From Veillonellales bacterium (lineage in GTDB: Bacteria; Bacillota; Negativicutes; JAAYSF01): a stretch of DNA of 46,336 bases. Within the stretch, counting starts at the first letter, position 1, and each line of letters begins with the position of its first letter. The notes under the pieces were generated by a model that ran no database searches, was not told the DNA's origin, and saw only the letters and a program-made list of their open reading frames with translations. Below, one piece after another: positions 4,909-46,087 of the stretch. The stretch lies in assembly GCA_039680175.1 (NCBI GenBank), contig JBDKTO010000007.1:1-46336 (forward strand), written 5' to 3'. The translations under genes were made by a program, and so were the position numbers.

Positions 4909-6225
4909 TTATTCTTCGATTATAGCCTGTTGACCTTCCGGCGGTACTTTTTCGAGCATGTTGAGAGCCTGTTTGACTCTGCGTTCTCTATAGGCTTGTT
5001 CGCTTGGAAGCGGTAATGTTGGATCACCAAATACATGCAGTACGCTATTACCTCTTAAAATACGGTTGGAACCGATGCCCTCCGCAATCTTCGTTAAGTT
5101 AGTTACTTGAATTACCGGGATACCGGCACGTTGAATTTCTTTTGTAATCATGGAACCTCCACGACTGCTGGTGCCTCACGTGGATGTTTCGATAGCCGCG
5201 TCGCATTCATCGGACAGTAATGCCTGTGCTATCCCCTCGCCAAATTTCTTACATTTATCCATCGGCGTCATAACACCCGCCGTGGAATAGATGACATCAT
5301 CTAATGCTCCTACAACGCCTTCTTTAACAAGCTTACGCATGGCGTCCACCGGAACGAGACGGTTCGGATCCTGTAATACAAATGCATTGTTATAGCCTTG
5401 ATGACTAACTTCCCAATCTTTCGGATTCAACGCATCCATACCTTCAATGGAATACCGTTTAAAAGCCTTAGAATTAGTTGGGACCTGATTATCCGGATTG
5501 CCAAAGGGAACCAGACCACCGTCGGTAACAAGACCAATCTTACATTCGGCCAAGGGTTTTTTCAAAACAGGAATCGGTATTTCTTCATGGTTCGGCATGA
5601 TGACTTCCGTCTTGAATGGCTTGCCGTAATACTTATCAAGCAGCATATTGATGCCGCGGGTCGCTCCCGGGATGGAATAATCAATGGGAACCGCCGGGCC
5701 GCTGCCATGATAATGTTCCGCCTTGCCATCGCCAATGTTATCGCCGACAATAAGACGCTTTGCAAATACTGCGACTTCGCCCAGAACTTTACGCATATTT
5801 CTCGCGTTGTTATCACTCTGAAGAATATAGCAGCGATTCTTATAGAGATCGGTACCAGGGTTTTCGGCGAATAATGCCGTCACAGCAGGAATCTTAAGCT
5901 GCTCCGTAATGGCAGCTGTAGTGGCGCCGCACCCTAACCCATACCGACCTGCGTTAAAGCCAGGACCGGCAACAAATAGATCCGCCTTTGCCTTTTTTAC
6001 TATTTGTACAATTTGCGGAATAATTTCTGCAGTTTTTTCGGCGATCGTGTTATCACCGCATATGATGGTCTCAACAATTTCATAGCCTTCACCCAAATCA
6101 TGAGCAAGACCTACGCCGGGACCTACGGGACCCGTTTTAGTGGACAGGCCTACACTGGCCGTATCTTCGCCGCCCATGCCGGCATAAAACTGATTGATGT
6201 AATGAACAACTTTCTTTTTAGCCAT
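4909..6225 (-). CDS. Selenocysteine-containing GrdB/GrdF/GrdH-like subunit of protein B (UGA read as Sec350)
   Basis: This is the substrate-activating selenoprotein subunit of protein B, 438 residues when the in-frame TGA at 5178-5176 (codon 350) is read as Sec. As plain ORFs the gene splits into an N-terminal 350-residue and a C-terminal 80-residue piece. The N-terminus has the family pattern VVHYINQFYAG-GGEDTA and later GPGFNAGRYGLGCGA. The Sec region reads ETST-U-GTSSRGG-SMITKEIQRAGIPV. In the GrdB I recall the motif is U-x-x-C-x-x-C; here both cysteine positions are Ser and Gly. The ATG at 6225 is chosen over 6237 because it starts 2 nt after the upstream stop and has an AGGAG site. The substrate cannot be assigned from sequence. 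Confidence 0.92.
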
Positions 6226-6227
6226 AT

Positions 6228-7502
6228 TTAGCAGCACTCCTTTCTTGGAATATCGGCATCAGTCGTTTCATAGAAATCACCGAGTTGTGACCAGATACCT
6301 TGATAGCAGAAATTCGTTTCATGTGTAAACGGTCCCCACGGATTCAGGCCGAGCAAGCACGGTACATTCGCCTTTTCACCGATGAGTCGAGAAACTTTTG
6401 GATGGTCAAGCGTCCAGTTTCTGCCGCTGTTGATGACAGCATCGACCTTCGGGTCGGCAATAACCAGCATGTCACCGGGTTCGTCATTCGATACTGCCGA
6501 AAAATTCAAAGCAGCCGGCATACCCATTTTTTGGCACCAATTGAACGCTAAAGCCGAATCTAACTGGCAGTGGCCCATACCGGACTTATTTAACATGACG
6601 CAATCCGCATGCAATGTTTCTTTGCATAACGTTGCGGCGATCATACCCATTGTATCTTTGCCATCGATCTTCATAACATTGTTGGCATAGACGATGCCAA
6701 CAAATTCAAGATCTTTGCCGTGCCGCTTCATCAATTCTTTGATATAAACTTCATTTTGCAGAAAATAGTTCGGCTCCCAATACCGCTCGACGATAGCGCC
6801 GTCGAGTATTTCCGTCGGCTGTACAACAATGGGCAGATAATTCAAGGCACTCTGGCCGTAATACAGGAAATTCCAGGTATCATGGGAAGCGATCTGTGTA
6901 AGTAAATATGCCACCTTCGGCAGTGGTTTACCGTCCGGTCCGGGACCTACTGGACCGAGCTCGAACGTTTCTGTTTCATCCGGCTTCATATTAATGGCCA
7001 TTTTAGCCAAAAATACGTTCAGGGACAATGAGGAATGCTTCAATGCTTCGGCATAACTTAGAGCGGATACTCCTTCGCCTGGCGTTGCATCCAGACAGAT
7101 ATGATAATGTCTGGAGAAATTGCTGTATTTTGCGCAGGGGCCTCCCATGTCCAGATAATATTTTACATTGCATTTAGCGTAGTAAATATCGGAAACGACA
7201 ACGCCTTTCAAGGCTACAGTCCTGCCATCTCCTGCCGGGGCCAGTTTCCCCCAGATGCCGGGATAAGATTCTTCCGGATGATCTGCCTTGCAGCGGGGCT
7301 GCATGACATCATGGATGCCGAGAATACGGCAATCTTCTCCGGGACTTGCAATTTTAATGTCGATCGTGCCAAACAGATCACTGGCAGCAACTTTGATCAG
7401 TTCTTCCTTGTTTACAGTCAAAACGCCGTTAACCAACGAGGTCTGATCGCCAAACTTAACATCATGGACGCGAATATAATCGATCTGGAGACGTTTGCTC
7501 AT
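6228..7502 (-). CDS. GrdE/GrdG/GrdI-like protein B subunit lacking the pyruvoyl-precursor cysteine
   Basis: This 424-residue protein is the partner of the Sec-containing subunit in the substrate-specific protein B. Family marks are an N-terminal RVHDVKFGDQT and VNKEELI, then LPIVVQPTEILDGAIV near residues 222-238 and RHGKDLEFVGIV near 260-270. In GrdE a proprotein is cleaved before a Cys (Asn-Cys) just after the DGAVV-like segment to form a pyruvoyl cofactor. Here that segment continues ERYWEPNYFLQNEVY, and there is no Cys at all between about residue 136 and residue 293. Either no pyruvoyl group is made, or the chemistry differs. The C-terminal half also departs from GrdE as I remember it. 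The stop lies 2 nt before the next start, so translation is probably coupled. Confidence 0.88.
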   Translation of the reverse strand: MSKRLQIDYIRVHDVKFGDQTSLVNGVLTVNKEELIKVAASDLFGTIDIKIASPGEDCRILGIHDVMQPRCKADHPEESYPGIWGKLAPAGDGRTVALKGVVVSDIYYAKCNVKYYLDMGGPCAKYSNFSRHYHICLDATPGEGVSALSYAEALKHSSLSLNVFLAKMAINMKPDETETFELGPVGPGPDGKPLPKVAYLLTQIASHDTWNFLYYGQSALNYLPIVVQPTEILDGAIVERYWEPNYFLQNEVYIKELMKRHGKDLEFVGIVYANNVMKIDGKDTMGMIAATLCKETLHADCVMLNKSGMGHCQLDSALAFNWCQKMGMPAALNFSAVSNDEPGDMLVIADPKVDAVINSGRNWTLDHPKVSRLIGEKANVPCLLGLNPWGPFTHETNFCYQGIWSQLGDFYETTDADIPRKECC

Positions 7503-7577: not shown

Positions 7578-8828
7578 TTAGCCTTTGCAAGATTTACCGT
7601 CTTTCTTGTAAATAGTGCCGTCTTTCATGACAAAGTTGATGTTCTGCGGTGCCATGACGCTCATATCGGCAATGGGATCCCCATCAATAGCAACAATATC
7701 GGCCAGCTTGCCGGCTTCGATAGTGCCGAGACGATCGTTCCAATCCATGAATTCCGCACAATAGCGAGTTGCGCCTAAAAGTGTATCTTCCGGTGTAATC
7801 CCTGCATCAGACATGCATTTGAACTCACCGTGCTGCTGGCCATGAACCATAAGCGGAGTCCCCGTATCGGTACCAAACAAACAACGTACGCCGCGATCAT
7901 ATATCTTTTTAATATTGGTTGCATGTTTTGGTACCAAAAACGAAGCCTTGGCTATGATAGAATCGGAAATGCCTCTTTCTTTGCCATGAAGCATCACGCC
8001 GCGGAATGTAAGGAGCGTAGGAACCGCCAAAACGTTATTCTTCAGCATATAATCGATGCATTCGTCATCGGCAAGAGTGCAATGTTCAATCGACGAAATA
8101 CCCGCCTTGGCTGCATCTTTGATACCGGCAGTGCCATGAGCATGGCAGGAAATTTTAACATGATGCATCTTTGCAACATCAACGGCTGCTTTGATTTCAT
8201 CATAATCCATATTTTGTCCGCCCACGTCGCCGCTATTGCTATATACGCCGCCCGTTACCATGATTTTCAGAAAGTCGATGCCGTATTTCAGCATCGTACG
8301 GCAGGCGGTCCGTACTTCATAAGGACTATCAGCCGAATTGACCGGCTTAAAGCATTGCTGACCAAAGGTCTCCTGCGGATAGCCCATCGACATATGGCCA
8401 CCCGTCTGTGTAATATACATGCCGCTTGTAAAAATACGAGGGCCCCAGACAATACCTTGGTTGATGGCATCACGGATGCATTGACTGCCTCTTACTGTCG
8501 GATATCCGAGATCACGAACAGTAGTAAAACCTGCCATCAGGTCTGCCTGAACATTCCGTAAGGCTTTCATAGCAACTAACCCGGCCGGGTCATTGACTTC
8601 GCTGATCGAAGGTCCGCCGCCAAAAGCGATATGCACATGTCCGTCAATCAAACCCGGCATAACAAATTTATCGGACATATCCAGAACTTCTTCACCCGGC
8701 GCAGGCTTGTAAGCTGCTAAGTCCAATATTTCCTGGATTTTATTTTCTTTTACACGAATAACCTTATTTTTTGTCACCTTTCCCTCTACCGCATCAAACA
8801 ATTTACCACATTTGATTGCTATTGCCAT
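7578..8828 (-). CDS. Metal-dependent amidohydrolase, imidazolonepropionase/Xaa-dipeptidase-like
   Basis: The 416-residue protein is a complete amidohydrolase-superfamily TIM barrel: H-x-H at residues 64-66 (GLIDGHVHIAFGG), the likely carboxylated Lys188 in FLKIMVTGG, His229 in SCHAHGT, His249 in SIEHC and Asp321 in LFGTDTGTP. All binuclear metal ligands are present, so it should be active. The closest type I recognise is the cytosolic family of imidazolonepropionase-like and Xaa-Pro/Xaa-Arg dipeptidase enzymes. It is the first gene before the protein B subunits, with a 75-nt gap. It probably hydrolyses an amide or cyclic amide to release the amine that the reductase then cleaves; the substrate is inference. 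Confidence 0.85.
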   Translation of the reverse strand: MAIAIKCGKLFDAVEGKVTKNKVIRVKENKIQEILDLAAYKPAPGEEVLDMSDKFVMPGLIDGHVHIAFGGGPSISEVNDPAGLVAMKALRNVQADLMAGFTTVRDLGYPTVRGSQCIRDAINQGIVWGPRIFTSGMYITQTGGHMSMGYPQETFGQQCFKPVNSADSPYEVRTACRTMLKYGIDFLKIMVTGGVYSNSGDVGGQNMDYDEIKAAVDVAKMHHVKISCHAHGTAGIKDAAKAGISSIEHCTLADDECIDYMLKNNVLAVPTLLTFRGVMLHGKERGISDSIIAKASFLVPKHATNIKKIYDRGVRCLFGTDTGTPLMVHGQQHGEFKCMSDAGITPEDTLLGATRYCAEFMDWNDRLGTIEAGKLADIVAIDGDPIADMSVMAPQNINFVMKDGTIYKKDGKSCKG

Positions 8829-8952: not shown

Positions 8953-9840
8953 TTACCATTCCTTCAAATCTGATTGCTGAAGACTTTGATCACTTTCTGC
9001 CTTGATGGCCTTTTTGAGTATAACAAGCATCTTTTGTTTATCAGTCAGTAAGCTGCCTTCAATGGGTACAGAGTTAGAAACATGTGTTCCTGCAAACCAG
9101 CAATCATGATCTGCATAGCGAATATTCTGTAAAAGCAATGCTTCTTCTTGCAAAATCGTATGCGGTGAGGCTGGCTTAAAGCGACCATTCTGAACATTCC
9201 GTTCCAACGGAGTCCCCGGCATAGCTGTAAGCGTCATAACCCGGATTGAATCGGGTCTTACCCGATTGTATAAATCGGCAGTATCCAGTGCATGCCGACG
9301 CCACATTTCCTGTCCCCCCAGCCCCAATATCGAGCTGAGTCCATAATGGATCTGCATCTTATCAAGTTTATGAAGAGCCGTTACGATTTGATCCGGTGTT
9401 TCTCCCTTCCGGCTGTTCTTTAAAATTTCCCGATTTCCCGATTCCACACCTATGTACACCATATGGAGACCGGCTTGGCGCAGGGATTCCAACTGACTAT
9501 CCGTCTTGTGCAGCACATCATCGGCCCGGCCATACATGGAAAACTGAGTAATTTGCGGCAGGTAACTCTGCACGTATTGAAAAACATCAATGAGATATTT
9601 GGCTTTAAATGCCAGTACATTGCCGCCGAGGAGATACATTCGATTTCCTCTGATGTCCTCATCAGCCATTTCCGCTAAATTATCTCCGAGTATTTCTGCC
9701 GGAAGAAGCTGCAACGGCGTTTCTCCGTTGGCGTACCGGCAAAAAGTACACTTTCCATAGCTGCAGCCAAGGGAAACCTCCAACAATGCGCTATTCGCTT
9801 CCAAAGGCGGTCGGTATACCCGCTCTTCCAACGTATACAT
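8953..9840 (-). CDS. Radical SAM protein
   Basis: The 295-residue protein carries an iron-sulfur motif near residue 25, C-x4-C-x2-C (G-CSYGKCTFC-RYA), spaced one residue wider than the usual C-x3-C-x2-C. It continues with a radical SAM barrel, for example GLHMVYIGVESGN and a late MPGTPLERN segment typical of the Elp3/HemN-like branch. The second ATG at 9840 is preferred to 9849 because TAGGAG lies 9 nt upstream of it but abuts the first ATG. It precedes the amidohydrolase by 124 nt on the same strand, so it may be the first gene of the reductase transcript or a separate unit. Its function is not known. Confidence 0.8.
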   Translation of the reverse strand: MYTLEERVYRPPLEANSALLEVSLGCSYGKCTFCRYANGETPLQLLPAEILGDNLAEMADEDIRGNRMYLLGGNVLAFKAKYLIDVFQYVQSYLPQITQFSMYGRADDVLHKTDSQLESLRQAGLHMVYIGVESGNREILKNSRKGETPDQIVTALHKLDKMQIHYGLSSILGLGGQEMWRRHALDTADLYNRVRPDSIRVMTLTAMPGTPLERNVQNGRFKPASPHTILQEEALLLQNIRYADHDCWFAGTHVSNSVPIEGSLLTDKQKMLVILKKAIKAESDQSLQQSDLKEW

Positions 9841-9882
9841 AGAGAGCATCTCCTATACTCGCTAATTCCTAAGCCGTGCTTT

Positions 9883-44204: not shown

Positions 44205-46087
44205 ATCGAGTAGGAGGCTACCCATTAATTGAGTAGCCGACCTCTCCCACCACAGTGCGTACCGTTCGGTACACGGCGGTTCAATAATTTAACGTAAATG
44301 AAATGCCTCGTATTTCTTCGTTATGTTCATATAGCCTAGGGATTCGAGGTATTTGTCTGTTAGCGTTCTTTTCAGTATTGGACTATTTGCTACACGCCAA
44401 TATCCCAATCTTGTATTGGCGTATTCCCATGCTTTCCTTTTATCCAGTCCTAATCTTTTCAGATTTTCAAACCGTGCCGAGATTTTCTTCCATTGTTTCC
44501 ATAGATACATTCTCAACCTGCGTCTTATCCACTGATTCATTTCCTGCATTTTGCCCCGCATGTCAGCGATGGAAAAATAGCCCAGCCATCCGGTTGTGTA
44601 TCTTCTTAGTTCCAGCAAAATGGCACCGATTGATCGGCCTCTGTTGCGGCCGGTTATTTCTTTGACCTTTTGCTTGTATCGTTTTAATACTTTGCCATGG
44701 GGCCGGATTCCTACTTTTCCTACTGCTTTATGCAGTGAGAATCCAAGAAACTTCTCGCGTAACGGACTGCCTACCTTACTTTTCTTACGGTTTACTTTTA
44801 GTTTCAGTTTCTCTTCAAGATAGCTTATACAGCTTTCCATTACGCGTTTTGCAGCTCTGGGACTTTTCACGTAGACATTACAGTCGTCTGCATATCTCAC
44901 AAATTTATGTCCTCTGCTTTCCAGCAGTTTGTCGAATTTCGTGAGATAAATATTGGATAGGAGCGGTGACAGATTCCCTCCCTGCGGTGTTCCCGCTAGG
45001 GTCGGGCTCATTATACCGCCTTCCATGACTCCGCTTTTCAGATATTTCCGGATAAGCCCTATTACCCGCTCATCTTTTATTTTCTCGCGGAGCATGTTGA
45101 TGAGAATGTCATGGTTCACTGTGTCGAAGTACTGCGCCAGGTCGAGCTCTACTATTCTCGTATATCCCTCTTCATAGTAGGCTTCTGCCTGCTTTATGGC
45201 CTGATGCGCATTTCTTCCCGGTCGGAAGCCATAGCTACTATCGGAAAATGTCTCTTCGAAGATTGGCTGGAGTACCTGCGCTATGGCCTGCTGTATCAGC
45301 CTGTCCAATACCGTTGGTATTCCCAGCTTTCTTTTGCCGCCGTCCGGTTTCGGAATTTCTACCCGTCGTACCGGCTGTGGCTTGTATCTTTCGCTTTTCA
45401 GGGCTTCAAGAAATTCTCCTTTGTGCTCTTTCAGCCACGCTTTCATCTCACCAACCTGCATTCCGTCTATTCCTGCAGCACCTTTCTTACGCATTACTCG
45501 AAAATAGGCTTTATTCAGATTGTCACGGCTTAAAATTTGCTCTAACAAGTTTACGCGGTTCCTTCTTGCCGATTCCGGTGTCACCATGCTCCGCGCTCCC
45601 TTGCTGCTCTTTGCTTCCAGCATACCCTCACAGGGGCAGCCCATTTTACTGGTTTTCTGCTCTCTTAACATGTCTTCACCTTCCTTTGCTCAGAAACTCG
45701 ATTATTGTTCGGTCTTTCCCGGGAATTTCCCCGGTACTATGACCTCGGCTGACTTCTCACGGTAAATCTTGTTTCAACCATGCTTCAATTTAATTATTTC
45801 CGCATGTCCGCGAGACCTCCCCGGGTAAGAACGCAGTCTTTCTCTCCATCTATCCGCTACATCTACAGGATTAGCCTCGAATAGTTTAGGGCTTCAGTTT
45901 GTGAGGCAACCTTACCCGGCTTCTTCCTGCCTTGTATGTGATTTCTGTTCGTCGGACCGGAGATTTGCCGCTGGCTTCCTTCAGATTCCACCTCGCGATG
46001 GACACCCTTGCTTTAAGCTGTACGCTTGGCACTATTAACCCGCGCTCGGGACTTTCACCCGTTAGACTGCGCCCATGCCGGGCGCAC
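44205..46087 (-). mobile_element. Complete group II intron, bacterial class C
   Basis: On the minus strand the element starts GTGCGCCCGGCATGGGCGC at 46087 and ends CTCGAT at 44205, about 1.88 kb. Domain V is the 34-nt hairpin near 44249-44282 (GAACCGCC...GGTACGCAC). Domain VI is the GGCTACTC/GGGTAGCC hairpin at 44216-44238. It encodes one reverse transcriptase. Class C introns insert behind terminator hairpins, and here the hairpin 46091-46131 lies directly upstream, while the 3' flank TTTTATC looks like the displaced T-tract of that terminator. Confidence 0.92.
44289..45671 (-). CDS. ltrA: Group II intron reverse transcriptase/maturase
   Basis: The 460-residue protein has the intron RT blocks: RRVEIPKPDGGKRKLGIPTVLDR near residue 103, YGFRPGRNAHQA near 148, LDLAQYFDTVNHD near 176, GTPQGGNLSPLLSNI near 228 and the catalytic YADD near 262. 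A maturase X domain follows, with KFLGFSL and RYTTGWLGYF. It has no HNH endonuclease at its end, as expected for class C. The ATG follows GGAAGGTG. The protein splices and mobilises the surrounding intron. Confidence 0.95.
   Translation of the reverse strand: MLREQKTSKMGCPCEGMLEAKSSKGARSMVTPESARRNRVNLLEQILSRDNLNKAYFRVMRKKGAAGIDGMQVGEMKAWLKEHKGEFLEALKSERYKPQPVRRVEIPKPDGGKRKLGIPTVLDRLIQQAIAQVLQPIFEETFSDSSYGFRPGRNAHQAIKQAEAYYEEGYTRIVELDLAQYFDTVNHDILINMLREKIKDERVIGLIRKYLKSGVMEGGIMSPTLAGTPQGGNLSPLLSNIYLTKFDKLLESRGHKFVRYADDCNVYVKSPRAAKRVMESCISYLEEKLKLKVNRKKSKVGSPLREKFLGFSLHKAVGKVGIRPHGKVLKRYKQKVKEITGRNRGRSIGAILLELRRYTTGWLGYFSIADMRGKMQEMNQWIRRRLRMYLWKQWKKISARFENLKRLGLDKRKAWEYANTRLGYWRVANSPILKRTLTDKYLESLGYMNITKKYEAFHLR

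What the first reader, a model, noticed from the sequence alone, without database searches (positions are those of the whole stretch)
4909..7502. Glycine-reductase-type protein B without the pyruvoyl cysteine
The GrdE-like subunit (6228-7502) aligns through PTEILDGAIV but lacks the following Asn-Cys that GrdE cleaves to make its pyruvoyl group; no Cys exists between about residues 136 and 293. The rest of the selenocysteine machinery is intact. Known: glycine reductase needs the carbonyl cofactor to bind its amine. Inference: this complex uses a substrate that cannot or need not form a Schiff base, such as an N-substituted amine or a new compound.
Basis: partly seen in the sequence, partly recalled or inferred. 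Interest (0 to 1): 0.85.

Follow-up and report, generated by a model that had tools for sequence, protein, structure and literature searches.

The report
Fluoroacetate-reductase-type selenoenzyme without pyruvoyl cofactor
The missing cysteine is real, but it is the normal state of an already named enzyme family (FarE/FarB) linked in 2023 to anaerobic breakdown of the poison fluoroacetate; this copy is a new member in an unusual operon that also holds the whole energy-conserving core.

Summary
The minus-strand GrdE-like protein (6228-7502) has Trp242 where GrdE, GrdG and PrdA have the Cys that becomes the pyruvoyl group. It is not a new kind of protein B: it matches NCBIfam NF053623, fluoroacetate reductase subunit FarE, at 864 bits (cut-off 675). 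In my alignment the Cys is present in 11/11 GrdE, 5/5 GrdG and 2/2 PrdA, and absent in 25/25 FarE and 15/15 betaine-type GrdI. FarE forms one clade (100/99); the window sits beside two Synergistota loci whose gene orders match the published Cloacibacillus far operons. Leong et al. 2023 already reported that FarE lacks the pyruvoyl cysteines and FarB lacks CxxC; the window's FarB reads STUGTSSRGG. New is the context: FarE-FarB with a FarC-like radical SAM protein, an amidohydrolase shared with only one other far locus, and a complete thioredoxin/GrdA/GrdC/GrdD core, outside Synergistota. Far loci also occur in many gut Lachnospiraceae, beside small-monocarboxylate permeases. Best explanation: a cofactor-free protein B that displaces a leaving group from an alpha-substituted acetate, fluoroacetate being the only tested substrate. 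The true substrate in this organism is unproven.

The parts
6228..7502 (-). farE: GrdE-like alpha subunit of protein B, 424 aa, without the pyruvoyl Cys; motif RYWEPNY at residues 240-246
   Evidence: NF053623 FarE 864 bits, cut-off 675; PF09338; alignment and tree
4909..6225 (-). farB: GrdB-like selenoprotein, TGA = Sec, STUGTSSRGG (CxxC lost); ATG at 6225 with GGAG at 6240-6237
   Evidence: PF07355; TIGR01918; translation; start region; motif table
5146..5166 (-). SECIS-like hairpin downstream of the Sec TGA (5176-5178), apical loop GGU
   Evidence: fold; conserved stem with changes on both sides in 20 FarB genes
7578..8828 (-). amidohydrolase (Xaa-Pro dipeptidase / arginine carboxypeptidase / ochratoxinase-like family), possible release of the substrate
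   Evidence: PF01979, NF051886 320 bits, under its cut-off, PDB relatives; 79% identical protein between farA and farE in G443/L097, nothing above 35% in the other 23 far genomes
8953..9849 (-). radical SAM protein, FarC-like
   Evidence: PF04055; 60% identical to the rSAM gene between farA and farE in G380/L096
3930..4871 (-). thioredoxin reductase TrxB of the operon
   Evidence: TIGR01292 364.6 bits
3573..3890 (-). thioredoxin TrxA
   Evidence: NF047697 161 bits
3025..3498 (-). grdA: selenoprotein A, CFVUTSAGAMD
   Evidence: NF040748 277.7 bits
1335..2879 (-). grdC: protein C beta
   Evidence: NF040746 782.7 bits
170..1351 (-). grdD: protein C alpha (acetyl phosphate release)
   Evidence: NF040747 564.6 bits

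Best explanation
This is a fluoroacetate-reductase-type protein B (FarE-FarB) in one operon with its own glycine-reductase core. FarE binds a small alpha-substituted acetate without a pyruvoyl cofactor. The FarB selenocysteine attacks the alpha carbon and expels the leaving group (fluoride in the known case), giving a carboxymethyl-selenoether. GrdA takes this over, GrdC/GrdD release acetyl phosphate for ATP, and TrxA/TrxB re-reduce the selenoproteins. Shown here: family membership, loss of the Cys, conserved replacement motif, Sec signal, complete operon. Inferred from the literature: the chemistry. Inferred by me, untested: the Arg, Tyr, Trp and Tyr of RYWEPNY hold the carboxylate and the leaving group, as Arg, Trp and Tyr do in hydrolytic fluoroacetate dehalogenases (PMC11022551). 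Also inferred: the amidohydrolase feeds the substrate. Fluoroacetate, or another small monocarboxylate with a good leaving group, is the likeliest substrate.
For: FarE 864 bits against a cut-off of 675. Tree: FarE one side of a 100/99 branch, window in an 8-row subclade (100/95), nearest identity 83% to L097. L096 has the order farA-rSAM-farE-farB, and L097 has farA-amidohydrolase-farE-farB without rSAM, matching what PMC10838667 says of C. porcorum and C. evryensis. That paper reports about 5000-fold induction by fluoroacetate, no high induction by glycine, and fluoroacetate degradation by three species. FarB lacks CxxC exactly as described there. The operon physically joins farEB to grdACD and trxAB, as does L018. 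Transporters beside other far genes are L-lactate/oxalate-formate MFS or LctP. The host has CrcB and five fluoride riboswitches.
Against: The link of far genes to fluoroacetate rests on induction and strain comparison; I found no purified enzyme or knockout. Fluoroacetate is rare, yet far genes occur in many gut Lachnospiraceae. The window lacks an adjacent farA; its only close homologue, 52% identical, is on another contig. Residue 239 is Glu in the window but Trp, Phe or Tyr in all other FarE. Fluoride riboswitches are common in the class (47 of 150 genomes), some with ten copies and no FarE, so they are weak support.
Confidence: 0.6

Rival explanations
1. Same cofactor-free chemistry, but the natural substrate is another compound, not fluoroacetate: a common small monocarboxylate with a displaceable group (for example chloroacetate or an activated glycolate), or, in this operon, a product that the amidohydrolase releases. 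Fluoroacetate is then a fortuitous substrate.
For: FarEB occurs across Lachnospiraceae, Olsenella, Catonella, Pyramidobacter and others, where fluoroacetate is unlikely to be common; LctP or L-lactate-type MFS permeases lie beside it. Only 3 of 12 far genomes outside the window's subclade have CrcB or a fluoride riboswitch, against 6 of 8 inside it. Amidohydrolase in the operon and Glu239 in the window. Leong et al. themselves suggest another preferred substrate.
Against: No candidate tested; the only inducer shown is fluoroacetate. The 6/8 against 3/12 split is not corrected for relatedness, and CLC-type fluoride exporters were not searched.
Confidence: 0.35
2. A betaine-reductase variant: the window's protein B cleaves a quaternary or N-substituted amine, as GrdH/GrdI do without a pyruvoyl Cys.
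For: GrdI also lacks the Cys (0 of 15, SGSFMPCSSK motif). Glu239 could face a cation (inference).
Against: FarE is a separate clade, about 30% identical to GrdI, with its own motif. FarB scores only 359 bits with the GrdH model, cut-off 775. Neighbouring transporters are for carboxylates, not betaine.
Confidence: 0.07
3. A carbonyl cofactor is made elsewhere: the FarC-like radical SAM protein converts the Ser of STUG in FarB to formylglycine, so a Schiff base to an amine is still possible.
For: Proposed by Leong et al.; a FarC-like rSAM gene is in this operon.
Against: The rSAM gene is absent from most far loci, and the Ser-Thr-Sec motif is also present in GrdB and GrdH without FarC.
Confidence: 0.08
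4. The Cys loss is a decayed or sequencing-damaged GrdE, and the complex is inactive.
For: Only that the processing site is absent.
Against: All ORFs are intact, the replacement motif is conserved in 25 sequences from three phyla, and the Sec signal is conserved.
Confidence: 0.01

Closest known systems
farACEB fluoroacetate reductase operon of Cloacibacillus porcorum MFA1 (Leong et al. 2023, PMC10838667) and NCBIfam NF053623 FarE
   Same: FarE without the pyruvoyl cysteines, FarB with Sec but without CxxC, FarC-like radical SAM gene, 82-83% identity to FarE in the two Synergistota loci of matching gene order
   Different: No farA transporter in the operon; amidohydrolase present (otherwise seen only in G443/L097); complete trxBA-grdACD core in the same operon; host is outside Synergistota; Glu239 in place of an aromatic residue
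Betaine reductase protein B (GrdH/GrdI)
   Same: Alpha subunit lacks the pyruvoyl Cys; selenoprotein beta subunit feeds GrdA and GrdCD
   Different: Different clade and motif (SGSFMPCSSK against RYWEPNY); GrdH keeps CxxC
Glycine reductase protein B (GrdE/GrdB) and sarcosine reductase (GrdG/GrdF)
   Same: Same Pfam families PF09338 and PF07355, same downstream core
   Different: GrdE and GrdG have SGNC with the Cys in every sequence examined; about 31% identity
Hydrolytic fluoroacetate dehalogenases (FAcD)
   Same: Act on the same substrate; use Arg, Trp and Tyr to hold carboxylate and fluoride (PMC11022551)
   Different: Asp nucleophile, hydrolysis to glycolate; no sequence relation claimed, so only an analogy

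Membership tests
FarE/FarB fluoroacetate reductase (NF053623) | FarE sequence over the curated cut-off | tested here: met
   864.3 bits against 675
FarE/FarB fluoroacetate reductase (NF053623) | No pyruvoyl cysteines in FarE | tested here: met
   Trp242 in the Cys column; 25 of 25 FarE lack it
FarE/FarB fluoroacetate reductase (NF053623) | FarB with Sec and without CxxC | tested here: met
   STUGTSSRGG
FarE/FarB fluoroacetate reductase (NF053623) | farA and farC in the operon | tested here: inconclusive
   FarC-like rSAM present (60% to L096); farA absent nearby, 52% homologue on another contig. Published far operons also lack one or both
FarE/FarB fluoroacetate reductase (NF053623) | Induction by, and fluoride release from, fluoroacetate | not testable with these tools
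   Needs cultures or purified protein
Glycine reductase GrdE | Asn-Cys processing site giving a pyruvoyl group | tested here: not met
   Tyr-Trp instead
Sarcosine reductase GrdG/GrdF | NF040793 / NF040794 over cut-off; Cys present | tested here: not met
   194 of 780 and 405 of 800 bits; no Cys
Betaine reductase GrdI/GrdH | NF040795 over cut-off; GrdI clade | tested here: not met
   359 of 775 bits; outside the GrdI clade

The most novel reading that the evidence does not exclude
FarE-FarB is not mainly a fluoroacetate enzyme but a widespread gut-bacterial, pyruvoyl-free protein B for an unrecognised small carboxylate electron acceptor; in the window's operon the amidohydrolase releases that substrate and Glu239 marks a changed specificity.
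Probability: 0.35. Interest if true: 0.7.

Novelty: new member of a known kind. Interest (0 to 1): 0.38.

Why it matters
It places an anaerobic C-F-cleaving selenoenzyme type outside Synergistota, in one operon with the complete acetyl-phosphate-forming core, which makes the proposed route from fluoroacetate to ATP directly testable from one gene cluster. It also shows that a protein B lacking the pyruvoyl Cys is the rule in two clades (FarE and GrdI), so the cofactor is not a general need of this enzyme class. The wide spread in gut bacteria raises the open question of the natural substrate.

Tried and rejected
Betaine clade placement: rejected by tree and model scores. Decayed GrdE: rejected by conservation. 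Solved structures: no relative of FarE or FarB in the PDB by sequence. AlphaFold model of FarE with 17 sequences: pLDDT 65.7, under 50 exactly over residues 204-263 that hold the motif, and no significant Foldseek match, so it says nothing about the active site. Fluoride riboswitches as specific support: the host has five, but relatives without FarE have up to ten, so weak. No fluoride riboswitch lies in the window or in five other far loci. The host organism was not identified beyond an unnamed 4.08 Mb genome. G380 and G443 are unnamed; their identity with C. porcorum and C. evryensis is inferred from phylum, genome size and gene order. A literature search for glycolate as a substrate of glycine-reductase relatives gave nothing useful.

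Full report
What is there. The two genes of the finding lie on the minus strand. The GrdE-like gene (6228-7502) and the GrdB-like selenoprotein gene (4909-6225) are the middle of a co-directional cluster that runs from 9849 down to 170: radical SAM protein, amidohydrolase, GrdE-like, GrdB-like, TrxB, TrxA, GrdA, GrdC, GrdD. The contig ends there (the window is the whole contig).

The observation. The GrdE-like protein reads PTEILDGAIVERYWEPNYFLQN, and its cysteines leave 137-292 empty. In a MAFFT alignment of 59 sequences, the column of the GrdE processing Cys is Cys in 11/11 GrdE, 5/5 GrdG and 2/2 PrdA, and never Cys in 25 FarE-type or 15 GrdI-type proteins. GrdI was identified by its neighbour scoring over the GrdH cut-off or by the shared SGSFMP motif. 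GrdG labels are firm for the NF040793-type rows; two more are divergent GrdE/GrdG-like proteins. The genome also has a canonical glycine set with SGNCVSAC.

What it is. NCBIfam calls it FarE, fluoroacetate reductase subunit, with 864.3 bits against a cut-off of 675. A maximum-likelihood tree puts all FarE on one side of a 100/99 branch and the window in an 8-row subclade (100/95) that also holds L096, L097 and L098 (drawn from the phylum of Pyramidobacter, Synergistota), L019 and L003 (Bacillota), L020 (Catonella morbi) and L015 (Olsenella). Three phyla in one shallow subclade point to horizontal transfer. With PrdA as outgroup, FarE branches before GrdE, GrdG and GrdI, so loss of the Cys in FarE and in GrdI looks independent. 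The supporting branch is only 88/82 and the outgroup is very distant, so this is not firm.

What was known. Leong et al. 2023 (PMC10838667) identified farACEB in Cloacibacillus porcorum MFA1: about 5000-fold induction by monofluoroacetate, no high induction by glycine, fluoroacetate degradation in three species. They state that FarE lacks the two cysteines for processing, like GrdI, and that FarB lacks CxxC. The window's FarB has STUGTSSRGG where this genome's GrdB and the GrdH proteins have STUGTCTRCG.

What is new here. First, farEB sits in one operon with thioredoxin, thioredoxin reductase, GrdA, GrdC and GrdD. The core Grd proteins are 51-65% identical to the genome's second, glycine-linked copy, so this is a dedicated set. 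L018 (Clostridiaceae BL-3) has a similar neighbourhood. This supports, by linkage, the published inference that the selenoether passes to proteins A and C. Second, the operon has both the FarC-like radical SAM protein (60% to L096) and the amidohydrolase (79% to L097). Among 25 far genomes only these two have this amidohydrolase; other hits there are 35% or less, apart from a 53% paralogue in this genome. Its solved relatives include arginine carboxypeptidases, prolidases and ochratoxinase, so it may release a substrate from an amide; this is a guess. Third, far genes are common in Lachnospiraceae, beside a TetR-like regulator, an LctP-family permease or an MFS L-lactate-type transporter, and a half-length GrdB-like protein with Cys for Sec. 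In Pyramidobacter-type loci the LctP gene may stand in for the transporter reported as lost in P. piscolens.

Mechanism. Shown: Sec codon, hairpin with the GGU loop, stem with changes on both sides in 20 FarB genes (two subclades, so few independent events), selB and tRNA-Sec in the genome. Inferred: direct displacement at the alpha carbon by selenolate without Schiff base. In FarE the SGNCVSAC of GrdE is replaced by RYWEPNY, with Arg240, Tyr241 and Trp242 invariant in 25 of 25. Hydrolytic fluoroacetate dehalogenases hold the substrate with Arg and the fluoride with His, Trp and Tyr (PMC11022551). The likeness is an idea to test; the structure model was too poor there to help.

Fluoride. The host carries CrcB and five fluoride riboswitches in a gene cluster with MutS-domain proteins, dynamins, an MFS transporter and a universal stress protein. 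This fits a cell exposed to fluoride but is not specific: 47 of 150 genomes of the class have such riboswitches, and relatives without FarE have up to ten. Among 20 far genomes, CrcB or an above-threshold riboswitch is in 6 of 8 of the window's subclade and in 3 of 12 others, a weak hint that fluoroacetate is the substrate in the first and perhaps not in the second.

Verdict. Real observation, ordinary for its family, already published in essence. A new member with an informative operon. The physiological substrate is open, and the window's Glu239, where all other FarE have Trp, Phe or Tyr, is unexplained.

Noticed in passing
L132 3963-5294 and 2642-4117 (-) (G307:C136, uncultured Lachnospiraceae; same as L079): Another protein-B pair: a GrdE-like subunit without the Cys (DGALCADTLFFASFKLYTYDYQN, about 30% to GrdE) next to a Sec GrdB-like protein (SAUGTCTRCG) and a sodium-symporter-like gene; fits neither GrdE, GrdG, GrdI nor FarE, substrate unknown.
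   Followed up: partly
L006:6799-7626 and equivalents in L003, L004, L008-L014, L019, L021, L096-L100: Half-length GrdB-like protein with Cys in place of Sec (SACGTSTRCG), usually beside a DhaS-like TetR gene next to farEB; role unknown. Absent from the window's operon.
   Followed up: partly
L141 6322-17225 (G000:C51): Five fluoride riboswitches in 10 kb upstream of MutS-domain proteins, dynamin GTPases, DUF6062, an MFS transporter, UspA, DUF190 and CrcB: a large fluoride regulon; relatives of the class have similar numbers.
   Followed up: partly
window FarE residue 239 (6786-6788, -): Glu where every other FarE has Trp, Phe or Tyr, directly before the RYW motif; codon GAG against TGG needs two changes.
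   Followed up: partly
G361 (L098 and L099): One Synergistota genome holds two far loci of the two different subclades.
   Followed up: no
window 45712-46002 (-): Group II intron RNA domains (RF02001, RF01998) near the contig end.
   Followed up: no
L131 5397-7981 (G000:C26): A 53% identical paralogue of the operon's amidohydrolase next to an MFS transporter and two-component genes.
   Followed up: partly
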